This document shows, one piece after another, positions 20,561 through 59,420 of a stretch of 64,000 nucleotides of DNA. Position 1 is the stretch's first letter; each line of letters starts with the position of its first letter. The notes beneath the pieces are model-generated. The model made no database searches. It had not been told where the DNA came from and worked only from the letters and a program-made list of their open reading frames with translations. The stretch comes from an uncultured Elusimicrobiales bacterium (GTDB lineage: Bacteria; Elusimicrobiota; Elusimicrobia; Elusimicrobiales; Elusimicrobiaceae): assembly GCA_944327085.1 (NCBI GenBank), contig CALVGG010000002.1, forward strand, positions 186,001-250,000, read 5' to 3'. The translations under genes and the position numbers were made by a program.

Positions 20561-21472
20561 TTAGAAAACTTCGTTTGCGTGCGGGTCACCGCCGTGGTTG
20601 TTGTTTTCCACCGGCTGATATTTGGTTTCCTGTTTAGAAGAACTGCACAGCGTGTTGTAGCCGGTGGCCGCACAGTGCTGGCCAGGGCGTACTTCTTCGC
20701 CGCAGGCGGCGCATGCATTGGCGGCTTTGGCGGCGGCTTTGCATGCGTGTTTTACGCCGTGGTAGCGTTCATCAATGGATAAAGCTTTGCCGCATTTGGG
20801 GCAGACGGCGCTGTCTTCCTGCACATTCTGGGCGGCCGGTTCTTCGTTAGAGGCGCTGCACAAGGTGGTGTAACCGGTGGCCGCACAGTGCTGGCCGGCG
20901 GAGTGGATTTCTTCGCCGCAGGCGGCGCATACGTGGCCGGCGGCTTTGCATTCGTGTTTTACACCGTGGTAGCGTTCGTCAATGGATAAAGCTTTTCCGC
21001 ATTTGGGGCAGACGGCGCTGTCTTCCTGCACATTCTGGGCGGCCGGTTCTTCGTTAGAGGCACTGCACAAGGTGGTGTAACCGGTAGCCGCACAGTGTTG
21101 GCCGGCGGAGTGAATTTCTTCACCGCAGGCGGCGCATACGTGTTTTGCCTGATCTTTTACCGCGGCCACTTTGGCGTGCGGGTCTTTACCCGTGTAGGGA
21201 GAGGGATTGGCGGATTTTCTGGCCTGGGCCGGGGAGGCTTGGCAAATGCCGCCTTTGGCACATTCCTGATGATATTTATCTAAAATGGTTTCCCCGCATT
21301 TGTGGCATTTGGCTTTTTGCTGGGCGCGGGCCTGCATAATGCGTCTTTGCAATACTTTTTCAATTTGCGCATTATCTTTTTTATTGGTTTTCTGTAAAGC
21401 AACCTGGGCTTGGGCACAAACAGCCAGGGTTAACAAACAACACACAGCGATTAAAATTTTATTGGTTTTCAT
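20561..21472 (-). CDS. Exported Cys-rich protein with 69-residue zinc-ribbon-like repeats
   Basis: 303 residues. A signal peptide (about 1-22, ending AQA) is followed by multiple CxxC modules. One unit contains 'CPKCGKALSIDERYHGVKH' and 'CAACGEEIHSAGQHCAATG'. Two copies are almost identical, offset by exactly 69 residues, with diverged copies at both ends ('CHKCGETILDKYHQEC' near residue 57 and 'CAACGEEVRPGQHCAATG' near the C-terminus). Each unit has two CxxC pairs plus His and Cys, as in zinc ribbons. That is unusual for a protein predicted to leave the cytoplasm. A GGRCC box array lies upstream. I do not recognise a named family; metal binding is inferred. Confidence 0.65.
   Translation of the reverse strand: MKTNKILIAVCCLLTLAVCAQAQVALQKTNKKDNAQIEKVLQRRIMQARAQQKAKCHKCGETILDKYHQECAKGGICQASPAQARKSANPSPYTGKDPHAKVAAVKDQAKHVCAACGEEIHSAGQHCAATGYTTLCSASNEEPAAQNVQEDSAVCPKCGKALSIDERYHGVKHECKAAGHVCAACGEEIHSAGQHCAATGYTTLCSASNEEPAAQNVQEDSAVCPKCGKALSIDERYHGVKHACKAAAKAANACAACGEEVRPGQHCAATGYNTLCSSSKQETKYQPVENNNHGGDPHANEVF
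20740..21150. repeat. In-frame tandem duplication, 207-base unit
   Basis: The stretch from about 20747 recurs 207 bases later from 20954 with only scattered single-base differences (for example GCTTTGCCGC at 20784 against GCTTTTCCGC at 20991). The period equals 69 codons, so the duplication keeps the frame and looks recent. Confidence 0.9.
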
Positions 21473-21534
21473 ATAGCCTCCGTAATTTGGTACTGCTTAT
21501 ACCACTAATATAAATATTTGTTTGTTTTTTGTGT

Positions 21535-21590
21535 AGGGTCTTTGGGCCTAGGCCTTTTGGCATTTTGGACCTACTGCCAGGCTGGGCCCT
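21535..21590. promoter_or_regulatory. GGRCC box array 1 (long form), upstream of the Cys-rich protein gene
   Basis: Boxes begin at 21536 (GGGTC), 21544 (GGGCC), 21567 (GGACC) and 21584 (GGGCC), so spacing is 8, 23 and 17. The second and third boxes are followed by TA. It lies about 63-118 bases before the start of the Cys-rich gene. Confidence 0.6.
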
Positions 21591-21637: not shown

Positions 21638-22147
21638 TTATAAAGCTTGCAAACGGCCGGGTTCGGAAAGGCGTTCTATGACGGATTTTTCTTTTTTGGG
21701 CTGGGGTTTTGCCGGCTGTTTCTTTTCTTCTTTTTTATTTTCTTTTACTTCTTGGCGTTTTTCTTTTAAGCTGTTTACGGTGTTGCCCAGCTGCATCATG
21801 TGGCCTTCTCTTCCCATTAAATAAAAGGGGACAACGCTGTCCTTCTTGGTTTGTTTAGGTTTGGCGGCCTGTTTTTTTACTTCTTGCTTTTTGGCCTCCA
21901 ACGCGCGGTGCTGTAGGATGGATTCGGTCAGTTTGCTCAGGTCCATCATGCGGCCTTCGCGCCCCTGCACATAAAAAGGCTGAGGCTGTTTGGAAGGGGA
22001 AGCGGAATCTTTAGTAATTTTAAAATCAGGCCATTTCAGTTCCATTTTGGAACCTTCCGGGCCGGGCACTCTTTGGGCAAAGGCGGCTTGCCCTGCCAAC
22101 AAGCATACGGCGGCGGATATGAGGGTAACGGCGGTTTTTAAGTTCAT
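21638..22147 (-). CDS. Exported basic protein with two GREG-MM repeats
   Basis: 169 residues with a signal peptide (about 1-24, ending AFA). Two repeats follow: 'PFYVQGREGRMMDLSKLTESI' and 'PFYLMGREGHMMQLGNTVNSL', each succeeded by a Lys/Glu/Gln-rich, probably coiled stretch. The very end is 'SVIERLSEPGRLQAL'. No family is recognised. The combination of a conserved 12-residue motif and low-complexity charged linkers suggests a scaffold or binding protein in the periplasm. It shares an upstream region, containing a GGRCC array, with the divergent clpP gene. Confidence 0.6.
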   Translation of the reverse strand: MNLKTAVTLISAAVCLLAGQAAFAQRVPGPEGSKMELKWPDFKITKDSASPSKQPQPFYVQGREGRMMDLSKLTESILQHRALEAKKQEVKKQAAKPKQTKKDSVVPFYLMGREGHMMQLGNTVNSLKEKRQEVKENKKEEKKQPAKPQPKKEKSVIERLSEPGRLQAL

Positions 22148-22206
22148 GTGTTCGTTTCTCCTTTCTTAATATATAAATACTTTAAAAGTTTTTTTAAATT
22201 TGCACC

Positions 22207-22238
22207 AGGGTCAAAAGGCCTAAGCTGATGCTGGGCCT
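22207..22238. promoter_or_regulatory. GGRCC box array 2 (short form), between the GREG gene and clpP
   Basis: Boxes begin at 22208 (GGGTC), 22216 (AGGCC, followed by TA) and 22233 (GGGCC), spacing 8 and 17. It ends three bases before a TTGATA that may be the clpP -35 box. Confidence 0.6.
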
Positions 22239-46225: not shown

Positions 46226-46249
46226 AGGGCCTATGTGCGGGTTGGGCCT
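46226..46249. promoter_or_regulatory. GGRCC box array 3 (minimal form), upstream of the exported-protein locus
   Basis: GGGCC-TA at 46227 and GGGCC at 46244, spacing 17 with nine bases between TA and TGGGCC. The upstream 8-base-spaced box is missing. The two boxes also form an imperfect hairpin. Confidence 0.5.
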
Positions 46250-46316
46250 TTTGACTCTTGCCCGCTCTCCATGGGATTTATATAGTATTTTTATATATTG
46301 CTATAAGGAGAGTTAC

Positions 46317-47249
46317 GTGAACAAAACCCTATTTATGCTTGTAGCCTCTTTGCTGCTGTTTCCCAATATGCTTTTTGGGCAAAAAGCAAAAGCTGTGCAA
46401 AAATTATTAAAATCCTGCCAGAACAAAGCCTATTGTTCTGCCGAACAAATGCAGCAGGCCCATGCCCAGGTGGAAAAAGCGGTGCAGCAGGCCATTGCCA
46501 AAAAAGCGCGCCAACAAGCCGCCAAATCCGCCAGCGTGAACTGGGAGTTGGGGGACTTCTTCCACACCCGTTATATTGAAACCACCGGCTTTGTTTTTCC
46601 TTTCGGAAAAATTGATTGGAGAAAAGCCGTTTTGAAATTTGGCGAGAAAAATTTTAAACAAGTGTTTGCCCGGGGATTGGAGGAATTATACCCTTCCGGC
46701 CGTTTTACTTTAATGCTCGTGCCGGAGTTGGAGCAAGTGCAGGAAATTTTTAAAACGCTTTGGTATAAAAACGGGCAAGAAGCCTCTGCCGCCGTGCAAA
46801 AGTTTTTGGACGATAAAACCTGGTACGGGCGCGATTATATTACCGTAAACGGTTATATTGTGGCCGTGGTGGACGGAAAGCAGCGCCCAATAAAAGATGT
46901 ATTATTTTTGGATTTAAAAAATAAAAAGTGGTGGTCTGTCAATCATAGCGTCAGCCGCGCAAACGCCATGAGACACCAAAACAAGTTAAACCTAATCAAA
47001 GAATATCACCCGGATACATGGGAAGAGTTAAATACGGTAGGTTTTGTATTGGATACCCGCCGCCAGGAAGTTTCTTATGACGGTATTCATTGGGTTCCCG
47101 TTTCTGCCCCTATGTTAAAGCAGTTAAAAGAATGGCAGAGAAAGAACAACTTTGTTTTGTTTACCCATAAAGGCTTGGCCGTAAAACGCGTGTTTAAAAA
47201 CCGCGCCGCTTACGAAGCCTGGAAGAAAGACCTGCGCAACGGAAAATAA
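46317..47249 (+). CDS. Exported protein of unknown function, family A member 1
   Basis: 310 residues from a GTG start at 46317, which follows AAGGAGAG by seven bases and begins a clean signal peptide (ending LFG). Mature N-terminus is helical (Gln/Ala/Lys-rich), then 'LEELYPSGRFTLMLVPE', 'VNGYIVAVVDGKQRPIKDVLFLDLKNKKWWSVN' and 'LNTVGFVLDTRRQEVSYDGIHWVPVSA'. The last two motifs recur in the next two exported proteins, defining a small paralogous family (D-x-L-x-L-D-hydrophobic, and G-F-hydrophobic..DGI-x-W). No known family is recognised. The gap to member 2 is 21 bases, so they form an operon. Confidence 0.6.
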   Translation: MNKTLFMLVASLLLFPNMLFGQKAKAVQKLLKSCQNKAYCSAEQMQQAHAQVEKAVQQAIAKKARQQAAKSASVNWELGDFFHTRYIETTGFVFPFGKIDWRKAVLKFGEKNFKQVFARGLEELYPSGRFTLMLVPELEQVQEIFKTLWYKNGQEASAAVQKFLDDKTWYGRDYITVNGYIVAVVDGKQRPIKDVLFLDLKNKKWWSVNHSVSRANAMRHQNKLNLIKEYHPDTWEELNTVGFVLDTRRQEVSYDGIHWVPVSAPMLKQLKEWQRKNNFVLFTHKGLAVKRVFKNRAAYEAWKKDLRNGK

Positions 47250-52732: not shown

Positions 52733-53434
52733 TTACGGGGCGGGTTGTAAGTCGGCAAAAATCAGGCGGGATACAAAATCCACCTTTATTTTTAACCAAA
52801 GGCCCTGGGCTTGTGCGGGGGCAAACCACAGGGTGGCTTCTTTGGGGGATACTTGCAGTTTGGCAGGTTCAAAAGGCCAATTTTTTAAAGCGCCGTACGG
52901 GGTGCGTTGTTCAAACAGACGGCCAAGAATATCTTTCATATCTGCCGTATAGGGGCTGGAGGGGGCAATTTTAAAGCGCTCGTCGCTATACAATACATGG
53001 CGAGTGGGGCGGAAAGTATAGGCCTGAAGCGCGGGGTTTTTATCCAGTTTTAACTGGTAAAAACGCAGCGGTTCCCTTAAGCGGCGTAAGTGGCGCTGTT
53101 TAAAAATATCCTGTTCTTCCTGTGTATAGGTGGAGGGAATTAAGCCGTTTATTTGGTCCAACATATTTTGCACGCCGGGGGAAGCGGGCCCCATAGCCTT
53201 TTGAGCATAACGCAGGCTTACGATGTCTTTTTCCACCAGTTTTTTTAATTCTTCTTTTATTTTAAGGCGTGTTTCAGTGGGCTTTTGGGCAAAGAAATTT
53301 TGCAAAAATTGGTATTTGGGGCGTTCCTGCCGGCTCTCCCAAAAGGGCCCAGCCCAACCGGGGGTATATAAAATAACCCCCATTAAAAAAGCCGCCAGGC
53401 CTTTTGGGATAAACAATATAAGCCTATTTTTCAT
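52733..53434 (-). CDS. Exported protein of unknown function, family B member 2
   Basis: 233 residues with a signal peptide (ending WAG). The second half, 'NPALQAYTFRPTRHVLYSDERF...TPYGALKN...LWFAPAQAQGLWLKIKVDFVSRLIFADL', lines up with the neighbouring exported protein ('LPALNSYALTVQHPADLYSVSTEE...TPYRALQ...VVLSFKTNQSQEIHLAFKPQENILKIAVGD'), so the two are probably diverged paralogs. The gene overlaps that neighbour by 11 bases. No known family. Confidence 0.55.
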   Translation of the reverse strand: MKNRLILFIPKGLAAFLMGVILYTPGWAGPFWESRQERPKYQFLQNFFAQKPTETRLKIKEELKKLVEKDIVSLRYAQKAMGPASPGVQNMLDQINGLIPSTYTQEEQDIFKQRHLRRLREPLRFYQLKLDKNPALQAYTFRPTRHVLYSDERFKIAPSSPYTADMKDILGRLFEQRTPYGALKNWPFEPAKLQVSPKEATLWFAPAQAQGLWLKIKVDFVSRLIFADLQPAP

Positions 53435-54035
53435 TTAGTTCTTGGGGGAAAGGGCCAAATTCCTGTTGGGAGATGGGAAAATCCCCCACGGCAATTTTTA
53501 AAATATTTTCCTGGGGTTTAAATGCCAGGTGTATTTCTTGGCTTTGGTTGGTTTTAAACGAAAGGACCACCGCGCCGGATTCAAACTGTAATGCCCGGTA
53601 AGGGGTAGGAGACGGCTCTTTAGACTGCTTTGTAAAAGAAGCAAAAACCTGGTCCAGCAGGGCTATTTCCTCGGTGGAAACAGAGTATAAATCAGCCGGG
53701 TGCTGAACGGTTAAAGCATAGCTGTTTAAAGCGGGCAGCGCGTGCAGGCGGGTATAAATATGCCGGTAATTTTGCATAATGCGCTGTTGGGCTGCGGCAG
53801 ACGGATAAAATTGTTTTACGGTAAGCAAAAATGCGTCCTGCGCTTGCTGTTGCTGGCGCGTGGCGGACTGACTGCCCGTTTGCTGGGAAGAAAGCACATT
53901 GTTTTTTATTTCTTTAATGGTTTGCGCCGCCTTGGTTTTTTGCAATACGATGCTTTGCCAGTTTTGGGCATAAAGCGGGGCAGAAGCAAACAGAAAAATA
54001 AAAATAAAATACCCGGCGGTATTCAGTGCACGCAT
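53424..54035 (-). CDS. Exported protein of unknown function, family B member 1
   Basis: 203 residues from ATG 54035, nine bases after AAGGAG; an earlier ATG at 54056 overlaps the ribosome site. Signal peptide ends 'LYAQN'. A Gln/Ser-rich segment ('SSQQTGSQSATRQQQQAQ') follows, then the part shared with family B member 2. Predicted periplasmic or outer-membrane associated. GGRCC array 4 lies 50-80 bases before the start. Confidence 0.55.
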   Translation of the reverse strand: MRALNTAGYFIFIFLFASAPLYAQNWQSIVLQKTKAAQTIKEIKNNVLSSQQTGSQSATRQQQQAQDAFLLTVKQFYPSAAAQQRIMQNYRHIYTRLHALPALNSYALTVQHPADLYSVSTEEIALLDQVFASFTKQSKEPSPTPYRALQFESGAVVLSFKTNQSQEIHLAFKPQENILKIAVGDFPISQQEFGPFPQELNEK

Positions 54036-54084
54036 AAATAAAATCTCCTTAACCACAGGATAAAAATTTTTATTGCCCCGCGCC

Positions 54085-54116
54085 AGGGCCTTTGGGCCTA
54101 CATTTCAGGTGGGCCC
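54085..54116. promoter_or_regulatory. GGRCC box array 4 (short form), upstream of family B
   Basis: Boxes GGGCC at 54086, 54094 (followed by TA) and 54111, spacing 8 and 17. Confidence 0.6.
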
Positions 54117-54188: not shown

Positions 54189-54737
54189 TTAATATTTAAT
54201 ACCGTATTTACCGGTATTTTCCAGACTTTTCATCCACAGTTTAAAAAACTTTTTGGTGCGTTGGGCTTTGGCGTCTTTTACGGCCTGGCGCATTTTGTTA
54301 AGCTGCACCTGCACCAAATACAGATGGTGGTTATTATCGGCATTAAATACAATTCCGTCTTTTTCCAATAATTCACCGGCGGCTTTAAACGCTTTTAAAA
54401 GTTCCCGGTTGCGGCTTTGCATTCTTTTATAGTTGGAACGCGCGAGCATACTTTCGGACAAACGCATCATGGCAAATTCTTCCGTGCCTTGCAAGAAAGG
54501 GTTTTGTTTGGCTAAAGCATCGGCGGCGGAATTTAAAGTGCTTTGGGCGTTAGTTTCTAAAATGTCTTTTACGGCTTTGTATAAGTCAGAAAAAGTATAG
54601 CCTTGGGGCAAAGTTTTGCTGGCTTGTTGGGCCGCTTGTTTAAGAGGGTTCAGTTCGGCCGATACGGGGGCAGGCTGAGCCATGGCGGCACAAGTAAAAA
54701 ACAGCATGCTTAACACGGCGAATAGTTGCTTTTTCAT
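54189..54737 (-). CDS. Exported helical protein of unknown function
   Basis: 182 residues, signal peptide (1-20, ending AMA). The mature part is nearly all helical and basic, with 'LNPLKQAAQQASKTLPQGYTFSDLYKAVKDIL' and a Lys-rich end. No Cys, no recognised domain. GGRCC array 5 lies in the shared upstream region with typA. Confidence 0.55.
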   Translation of the reverse strand: MKKQLFAVLSMLFFTCAAMAQPAPVSAELNPLKQAAQQASKTLPQGYTFSDLYKAVKDILETNAQSTLNSAADALAKQNPFLQGTEEFAMMRLSESMLARSNYKRMQSRNRELLKAFKAAGELLEKDGIVFNADNNHHLYLVQVQLNKMRQAVKDAKAQRTKKFFKLWMKSLENTGKYGIKY

Positions 54738-54794
54738 AGAAGCTCCTTGTTCTTAAAATAACGACTGTATTCCCTTATTTAATATTTTTACCGT

Positions 54795-54859
54795 AGGGCC
54801 AGAAAGGGCCAAAGGACCTATTTTTTTCTGTTTTTTGGGCCTATGTTTTTCCTGGGCCC
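54795..54859. promoter_or_regulatory. GGRCC box array 5 (long form, most complete), between an exported-protein gene and typA
   Basis: Boxes begin at 54796, 54806, 54814 (GGACC), 54837 and 54854, the rest GGGCC. The last four have spacing 8, 23 and 17. The third and fourth are followed by TA. Confidence 0.65.
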
Positions 54860-58572: not shown

Positions 58573-58617
58573 TTTATCATTTACCCCGCATAAAGGAAAT
58601 ACACCGGTTAAAAAGGA

Positions 58618-58652
58618 AACCCCTCTGGCAGGGTTTGGGACCAGAGGGGTTT
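58618..58652. other. Orphan terminator-like hairpin in the divergent region
   Basis: AAACCCCTCTGG / CCAGAGGGGTTT perfect stem with an 11-base loop. It lies between two divergent genes, where no upstream gene needs a terminator. Confidence 0.45.
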
Positions 58653-58719
58653 GGGGGATTAAATTGAAATTTAGCTTCTTGCTATATTATTAGAATATAA
58701 CTTTTAATTTGTTGTAAAC

Positions 58720-58773
58720 AGGGCCATTGGACCCAAAATAAAAAATATTTTGTACCTAGAAGCATTTGGGCCT
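58720..58773. promoter_or_regulatory. GGRCC box array 6 (long form), upstream of the TPR lipoprotein
   Basis: Boxes begin at 58721 (GGGCC), 58729 (GGACC), 58752 (GTACC, followed by TA) and 58768 (GGGCC), spacing 8, 23 and 16. A TATAAT box follows at 58781-58786. Confidence 0.58.
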
Positions 58774-58817
58774 TTTGTTGTATAATTTGTTAGGCCTTTT
58801 TAGAGGAGGTATTGTGT

Positions 58818-59420
58818 ATGAAAAAACATTTTTTGCTGTTATGTGCTTGCGCGCTGGCGGCGGCGTGCCAAACGTTGCCCACGTCTTCTGAATATTTGGT
58901 GCGGGGGGACGGATATTTTAAAGACGGTAAAATAGAACAGGCCTTAAAAGCTTATGATAAAGCCCTAAAATTAAACCCGGACAGGACAGATATTTACGCG
59001 TCGCGCGGCTCGGCCTATTTTTTTAAGGGGGATTATGCCGCCGCGGAAAACGATTTTTTAACCGTGGTTGAAAAAAACCCCTTTCAGGCGGACGCTTACA
59101 CGGCACTTGGTTCTGCTTTGGCTGCCCAGGGGGATTATGACAATGCTTTAAAAATGTTTAGCATTTCTTTAAGTTTAAACCCGGGCAAGCCGGAAACTTT
59201 CTTCTCCCGCGGGGGCGTATATTTTATGAAGGAAGATTATGATAAAGCCATTGCGGATTATTCTTCCGTTATTTTGCTGGCCCCGGCAGGGGAAGTGTAT
59301 AACGCCCGCGGCGCGGCTTATTTAAAAAAGGGGGATAAAGAAAAAGCCCAGGCTGATTTTAATACAGCCCAAGGGGGGCGTTTCCCGGAAAAACTGAACG
59401 AATATTCCATGATAGATTAG
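58818..59420 (+). CDS. TPR-repeat lipoprotein
   Basis: 200 residues from ATG 58818, eight bases after AGAGGAGG. Lipoprotein signal with Cys in 'ALAAACQTLP'. About four TPR units follow ('SEYLVRGDGYFKDGKIEQALKAYDKALKLNP', 'TDIYASRGSAYFFKGDYAAAENDFLTVVEKNP', 'ADAYTALGSALAAQGDYDNALKMFSISLSLNP', 'PETFFSRGGVYFMKEDYDKAIADYSSVILL'). It should be anchored in the outer or inner membrane and mediate protein contacts, as PilF/NlpI-type lipoproteins do; with several pilins in the window a pilotin-like role is possible but unproven. Confidence 0.82.
   Translation: MKKHFLLLCACALAAACQTLPTSSEYLVRGDGYFKDGKIEQALKAYDKALKLNPDRTDIYASRGSAYFFKGDYAAAENDFLTVVEKNPFQADAYTALGSALAAQGDYDNALKMFSISLSLNPGKPETFFSRGGVYFMKEDYDKAIADYSSVILLAPAGEVYNARGAAYLKKGDKEKAQADFNTAQGGRFPEKLNEYSMID

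What the first reader, a model, noticed from the sequence alone, without database searches (positions are those of the whole stretch)
54795..54859. A spaced array of GGRCC boxes recurs at six intergenic sites beside genes for exported proteins of unknown function
Seen directly: box starts (5-mer GGRCC or one change) are 21536/21544/21567/21584; 22208/22216/22233; 46227/46244; 54086/54094/54111; 54806/54814/54837/54854; 58721/58729/58752/58768. Spacing is 8, then in the long form 23, then 17 (16 once). The fine pattern is also kept: A before the first box, three A/T bases between boxes 1 and 2, TA after the box that precedes the last one, nine (once eight) bases, then T before the final GGGCC. 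The bases between boxes are otherwise unlike, so this is not a copied repeat. Each site lies within about 30-130 bases upstream of an exported-protein gene. Fixed spacing with variable filler suggests a protein-binding array, and so a regulon. All six have the same chromosomal orientation although the genes point both ways, which leaves open a strand-oriented chromosome motif.
Basis: seen in the sequence. Interest (0 to 1): 0.82.

Follow-up and report, generated by a model that had tools for sequence, protein, structure and literature searches.

The report
Promoter array controlling exported proteins
In gut bacteria of the phylum Elusimicrobiota, about 57 promoters per genome share a spaced GGCC-box array just upstream of the RNA-polymerase site, almost all of them drive genes for exported proteins, and a matched change in protein and DNA in one relative points to a single DNA-binding response regulator as the switch.

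Summary
The six arrays are real and belong to a genome-wide regulon. Read on the strand of the target gene, each is an upstream activator site fused to a promoter: TRGGYC-YWWW-GRCCC abutting the -35, then 17 bp, then TANNNT, centred near -42.5. In 51 of 59 promoters a phased half-site or second copy lies 22-25 bp upstream (shuffles: 0.4). The genome holds 57 such promoters (E<=0.01); by inspection 52 precede signal-peptide genes, mostly unrelated to one another; about half look leaderless. Site 46227 points the other way, so orientation follows the gene, not the chromosome. All sampled congeners carry the motif, as do three other genera of the family and one genus elsewhere in the class. The box matches the DevR/OsdR box (AGGGCC-N4-GGCCCT). 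A widely conserved NarL/FixJ response regulator ("b") has the DevR-type K-K-N contact residues. One relative (G148) has the same architecture with GTAC replacing GGYC (61 matches, control 5), and its b is the only one of 29 aligned with K changed to N at the first contact residue; the second NarL-type regulator keeps its helix. I conclude that b, probably phosphorylated, activates an exported-protein regulon. No wet-lab evidence exists.

The parts
54775..54859 (-). Regulon promoter (long form): upstream half-sites 54837-54859, proximal palindrome TAGGTCCTTTGGCCC, -35 region and -10; target gene 54189-54737
   Evidence: R2 hit 54775-54822 E 7.7e-5; R1 partial hits 54804-54826 and 54835-54859
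54189..54737 (-). Target gene, exported 182-aa protein MKKQLFAVLSMLFFTCAAMAQ..., no family
54056..54116 (-). Regulon promoter (short form): GGCCCA-N9-TAGGCCC-AAA-GGCCCTGG ... TATCCT
   Evidence: R1 26.5 bits; R2 E 6e-6
53424..54035 (-). Target gene, exported 203-aa protein MRALNTAGYFIFIFLFASAPLYAQ..., no family
22174..22238 (-). Regulon promoter (short form); target gene 21638-22147
   Evidence: R1 23.9 bits; R2 E 1.1e-5
21638..22147 (-). Target gene, exported 169-aa protein MNLKTAVTLISAAVCLLAGQAAFAQ...
21503..21589 (-). Regulon promoter (long form); target gene 20561-21472
   Evidence: R2 E 6.3e-4; R1 partial hits 21535-21551 and 21565-21589
20561..21472 (-). Target gene, exported 303-aa protein with repeated zinc-ribbon-like CxxC motifs
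46227..46291 (+). Regulon promoter (short form) on the + strand: GGGCCTATGTGCGGGTTGGGCCTTTTGACTCTTG ...
   Evidence: R1 46227-46260 + 19.3 bits; R2 46242-46291 + E 2.1e-4
46317..47249 (+). Target gene (GTG start), exported 310-aa protein
58687..58772 (-). Regulon promoter (long form) with no ORF directly downstream
   Evidence: R2 58687-58737 - E 2.2e-6; R1 14.3 bits
58609..58685 (-). Predicted short transcript (about 75 nt) from that promoter, ending in a strong terminator hairpin: candidate small RNA
   Evidence: fold -24.9 kcal/mol, z -3.8; sequence
58818..59420 (+). Exported-protein gene MKKHFLLLCACAL... divergent from the preceding promoter; has its own TATAAT at 58781-58786; whether it shares the half-sites is unresolved
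   Evidence: sequence; ORF

Best explanation
The array is the operator of class II activator promoters. A dimer of a NarL/FixJ-family response regulator (called b here; 229 aa, own genome G000:C5 42230-42916, minus strand, outside the window) binds the palindrome GGYC-N4-GRCC centred about 42.5 bp before the start of transcription, overlapping a poor -35. A second dimer binds the phased half-site or copy 22-25 bp further upstream, probably cooperatively. Together they recruit the housekeeping RNA polymerase to a TANNNT -10. The regulon is about 57 promoters, nearly all for exported proteins of mostly unknown function, many with leaderless mRNAs. Shown here: the motif, its position, the gene enrichment, the conservation, and the matched change of motif and b helix. 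Inferred: that b binds it, that it activates, that phosphorylation is the signal, and that the sigma factor is the housekeeping one.
For: 57 sites at E<=0.01; fixed geometry of box, 17-bp spacer and -10 in 44 aligned promoters; phased upstream half-site in 51/59 against 0.4 in shuffles; 49/57 signal peptides against 30/99; same motif in all congeners searched and in other genera, again before exported-protein genes. b has KTIKN aligned with DevR K179/K182/N183 (roles from PMC5999986); OsdR box AGGGCCGATCGGCCCT (PMC5069765); DevR promoters have tandem boxes with the proximal one overlapping the -35 (PMC3029386; PMC5360333). G148: GTAC replaces GGYC (61 matches against 5 in control), same spacing and mostly exported genes, and its b, confirmed by neighbouring genes, is the only one of 29 with K to N at the first contact residue, while regulator a is unchanged there. 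G105 has the motif and b as its only GerE protein.
Against: No binding, expression or start-site data. The covariation is one event, and G148's b differs from the others at further positions. b is also present in f2 and G150, where R2 finds few or no sites. b itself has no site of this kind within the stretch held. Closest full-length PDB match of b is VraR, not DevR. G245 has the motif but no b ortholog was found in its 90% complete assembly. The signal-peptide rule is crude and the start sites are predicted.
Confidence: 0.77

Rival explanations
1. The operator is real but bound by another factor, such as the second NarL-type regulator 'a' (G000:C3 127108-127752, minus strand, next to a soluble HisKA_3 kinase) or a family not searched for.
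For: a occurs in the f1 genomes examined, the family in which the regulon is largest; only two DNA-binding families were searched for.
Against: a's recognition helix (SLNTVHVHRNNIMRKL) is the same in G148 (GTAC motif) and E. minutum-like G071 (GGYC motif), and lacks the K-K-N residues. G105 has the motif and no a.
Confidence: 0.15
2. The box is an extended -35 read directly by an alternative sigma factor, with no separate activator.
For: Fixed distance of box to -10.
Against: The -10 and +1 look like housekeeping promoters; the core is a palindrome and is repeated 22-25 bp upstream in 51/59 promoters, which a sigma factor does not need; the match to the DevR/OsdR box would be coincidence.
Confidence: 0.04
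3. The arrays are copies of a promoter cassette spread by gene duplication, or a mobile repeat, without current regulatory meaning.
For: Some targets are paralogs: one cluster of 6 and one of 5.
Against: 35 clusters among 50 targets; bases between boxes unrelated while boxes and spacing are kept across genera and families.
Confidence: 0.02
4. Strand-oriented chromosome motif, or an RNA hairpin/terminator.
For: Intergenic, GC-palindromic boxes in an AT-rich setting.
Against: No strand bias and orientation towards the gene; boxes lie upstream of the predicted +1 at a fixed distance from the -10; no Rfam match there.
Confidence: 0.01

Closest known systems
DosR/DevR regulon of Mycobacterium tuberculosis and OsdR of Streptomyces
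   Same: Nearly the same box (OsdR AGGGCC-GATC-GGCCCT, PMC5069765); tandem boxes, the proximal one overlapping the -35 (PMC3029386, PMC5360333); NarL/FixJ regulator with K-K-N contact residues; about 50 genes
   Different: Targets are exported proteins, not dormancy genes; AT-only centre of the box; phylum Elusimicrobiota; b is not shown to be an ortholog (best PDB match is VraR); neighbouring kinase is a receiver-HisKA protein, not a haem GAF sensor; frequent leaderless mRNAs
VraR/LiaR-type response regulators
   Same: Best full-length PDB match to b (E 4e-39); an envelope-related role would fit an exported-protein regulon
   Different: VraR has KTVKTH, without Asn at the third contact position; from general knowledge its sites are not GGCC boxes
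Class II activator promoters of the Crp/FNR type
   Same: Palindromic site centred near -41.5/-42.5 overlapping the -35; FNR-like 5-N4-5 geometry (own knowledge)
   Different: Different half-site; no Crp-type helix-turn-helix protein above cut-off in the genus

Membership tests
NarL/FixJ (LuxR-type) response regulators | Receiver domain plus GerE helix-turn-helix in the candidate regulator b | tested here: met
   Response_reg E 3e-29 and GerE E 1e-17
DosR/DevR-type regulon | Box GGGNC-N4-GNCCC | tested here: met
   TRGGYC-YWWW-GRCCC in 44 aligned promoters; OsdR consensus in PMC5069765
DosR/DevR-type regulon | Tandem boxes, the proximal one overlapping the -35 | tested here: met
   DevR arrangement from PMC3029386
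DosR/DevR-type regulon | Contact residues K179, K182, N183 | tested here: met
DosR/DevR-type regulon | b is an ortholog of DevR | tested here: inconclusive
   DevR E 4e-31 but VraR E 4e-39; no tree was built
DosR/DevR-type regulon | Haem-binding GAF sensor kinase partner | tested here: inconclusive
   Neighbouring kinase is receiver-HisKA-HATPase without GAF; the true partner is unknown
DosR/DevR-type regulon | Targets are dormancy and hypoxia genes such as universal stress proteins | tested here: not met
   Targets are exported proteins; no USP family among 50 scanned (NCBIfam list shows the first 25 of 62 families)
DosR/DevR-type regulon | Binding of the regulator to the box | not testable with these tools
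   Indirect only: motif and b helix changed together in G148
Crp/FNR regulons | Crp-type helix-turn-helix protein in the genome | tested here: not met
   No PF13545 match above cut-off in own genome or the 24 congeners searched; the weak hits inspected are LexA-like and ArsR-like

The most novel reading that the evidence does not exclude
Class Elusimicrobia uses one ancient response regulator as a dedicated switch for much of its exported proteome, with leaderless mRNAs, and one lineage (G148) has changed both the regulator's recognition helix (K to N) and dozens of operators (GGYC to GTAC): a traceable natural switch of DNA-binding specificity across a whole regulon.
Probability: 0.5. Interest if true: 0.82.

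Novelty: new variant of a known kind. Interest (0 to 1): 0.72.

Why it matters
No regulon described for Elusimicrobiota turned up in the literature searched, and most exported proteins of these gut bacteria have no known function. This gives a promoter signature that predicts co-regulated exported proteins across the class, a named candidate regulator, and a concrete hypothesis for a cultured species (E. minutum). The G148 case is a rare whole-regulon rewiring in which a specific residue change can be matched to a specific operator change.

Tried and rejected
Chromosome strand motif: rejected, orientation follows genes. RNA hairpin/terminator: rejected, the boxes lie upstream of +1. Crp-family regulator: none above cut-off in the genus; the weak hits inspected are LexA-like and ArsR-like. 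Regulator 'a': helix unchanged where the motif changes. Paralogous promoter copies: 35 clusters among 50 targets, filler unrelated. G243 as a second covariation case: 109 kb sampled, no motif found, left open. Literature searches for a known Elusimicrobiota regulon found nothing relevant (only the held open-access library was searched).

Full report
What is in the sequence. The six box groups exist at the stated places. A short pattern built on them, AGGRYCWWWGGRCCTAN9TGGGCC with up to 3 mismatches, has 17 matches in the 1.67-Mb genome and none when read backwards. Read on the other strand, nearly every match points at a gene that begins shortly downstream and encodes a protein with a signal peptide. 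Window site 46227 is mis-oriented in the finding: its third box (GACTCTTG) and its -10 (TATAGT) lie on the + strand, towards the + gene at 46317.

The unified anatomy. A sequence model of 17 sites (R1) led to further partial matches, and lining these up gave one architecture: TRGGYC-YWWW-GRCCC, directly followed by TTG or TGG plus three bases, 17 bp, TANNNT, six bases, then the likely +1. In 44 aligned promoters the two G of the left half and the last C of the right half are invariant, the predicted +1 is A in 40/44 and -1 is T in 34/44. The box core is a palindrome, GGYC-N4-GRCC, centred about -42.5. The 'spaced array' of the finding arises because a second copy or a half-site lies upstream at fixed phase: TRGGYC starts 22-25 bp upstream (peak 23), or GRCCYA starts 13-15 bp upstream. 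51 of 59 promoters have one or the other; shuffled upstream sequences give 0.4 on average, at most 2.

How many and beside what. The model of proximal box plus -10 (R2) finds 57 sites at E<=0.01 in the genome, exactly six of them in the window. With a crude signal-peptide rule 49 of the 57 first downstream genes qualify, against 30 of 99 genes in random stretches (Fisher p 7e-12); by eye 52 qualify. The model was built from these sites, so the count is not independent, but the choice of sites used sequence only. Of 50 target proteins 35 BLAST clusters result, so this is not one expanded family. Pfam names few: trypsin-like peptidases (5), weak ChaN-like matches (2), receiver domains (2), SpoIID, M20 peptidase, HEAT repeats. 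In 30 of 60 targets the start codon lies within about 6 nt of the end of the model match, next to the predicted +1, which suggests leaderless mRNAs; 22 of 60 have a -10 at the leaderless position and no Shine-Dalgarno, against 20 of 149 background genes.

Conservation. All 24 congeners searched have 12-46 sites. Among 295 genomes of the phylum, all listed congeners, three other genera of the same family and one genus (g22) of another family in the class have many sites; the sister family f2 has 0-3, and up to 5 at E<=0.02 in the six f2 genomes looked at again. Most sites inspected in f2 and f7 also precede exported-protein genes, and many keep an upstream copy. One genome, G071, is a single contig of 1,643,562 bases, which by my own knowledge is the size of Elusimicrobium minutum Pei191; it has 33 hits at E<=0.02. 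A named search puts relatives of the window's regulator among uncultured Elusimicrobiales/Elusimicrobiaceae, with Candidatus Avelusimicrobium at 92% identity.

Which protein. The box is nearly the DevR/OsdR box of actinobacteria: AGGGCC-GATC-GGCCCT (PMC5069765). DevR promoters also carry tandem boxes with the proximal one overlapping the -35 (PMC3029386; PMC5360333). That predicted a NarL/FixJ response regulator. An ortholog of b was found in every genome in which it was looked for, except G245, whose assembly is 90% complete. In the own genome, the G071 genome and G148 it lies next to a receiver-histidine-kinase gene and pseudopilin-like genes. In G105, which has the regulon, b is the only GerE protein.

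The natural experiment. G148, of the same family, had no convincing R2 hits. A weak hit showed the same architecture with GTAC in place of GGYC. A search for TAGTACTWWWGTACCTTG with up to 3 mismatches gave 61 matches in G148 against 5 for the reversed control, and only 3-7 in three other family genomes. Several copies lie 24 bp apart, the -10 follows after 17 bp, and the downstream genes are mostly exported. The b ortholog of G148, confirmed by neighbours, is the only one of 29 with N instead of K at the first contact residue; the other two contacts are unchanged. Regulator a has the same helix in G148 as in G071. So operator and b changed together while a did not. It is one event, and G148's b differs at other positions too, so this is strong but not conclusive.

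Mechanism. Most likely b, probably phosphorylated by a kinase (perhaps the neighbouring one), binds the proximal palindrome and, cooperatively, the upstream copy, and recruits housekeeping RNA polymerase at a promoter with a poor -35. Shown: motif, geometry, targets, conservation, covariation. Inferred: binding, activation, phosphorylation, sigma factor. The biological signal is unknown.

What remains open. Window site 58721 drives no ORF on its own strand; within about 75 nt there is a strong terminator hairpin, so it may make a small RNA, while the + gene at 58818 may or may not share the half-sites. The regulon looks small in f2 although b is present. G243 has a diverged b and its motif was not found.

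Noticed in passing
58609-58685 (-): A strong regulon promoter (E 2.2e-6) with no ORF; about 75 nt downstream a strong terminator hairpin (z -3.8): candidate small RNA in the regulon.
   Followed up: partly
G000:C1:328204-328251 (+): Another good regulon promoter with no ORF downstream; possibly a second small RNA.
   Followed up: no
L009:231-1457 (-) and L074:2280-3464 (+): Two regulon targets have a signal peptide and a C-terminal receiver domain (E 1.5e-12 and 2.3e-8): apparently exported response-regulator domains, which is odd.
   Followed up: partly
20561-21472 (-): Exported 303-aa protein with tandem near-identical zinc-ribbon-like CxxC repeats.
   Followed up: no
L205:2609-4368 (-): A second NarL-type two-component pair: regulator a and a soluble HisKA_3 kinase with a Cys-rich N-terminus, present in the f1 genomes examined; its regulon is unknown.
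   Followed up: partly
regulon promoters, own genome: About half of the regulon genes look leaderless (start codon at the predicted +1); 15% of background genes also have a -10 at that position against 11% in shuffles.
   Followed up: partly
G243, L410: Genome of genus g11 with a diverged b helix (SIKTVKNHLNKIFGKLNV) and a single R2 hit: possibly a second case of changed specificity.
   Followed up: partly
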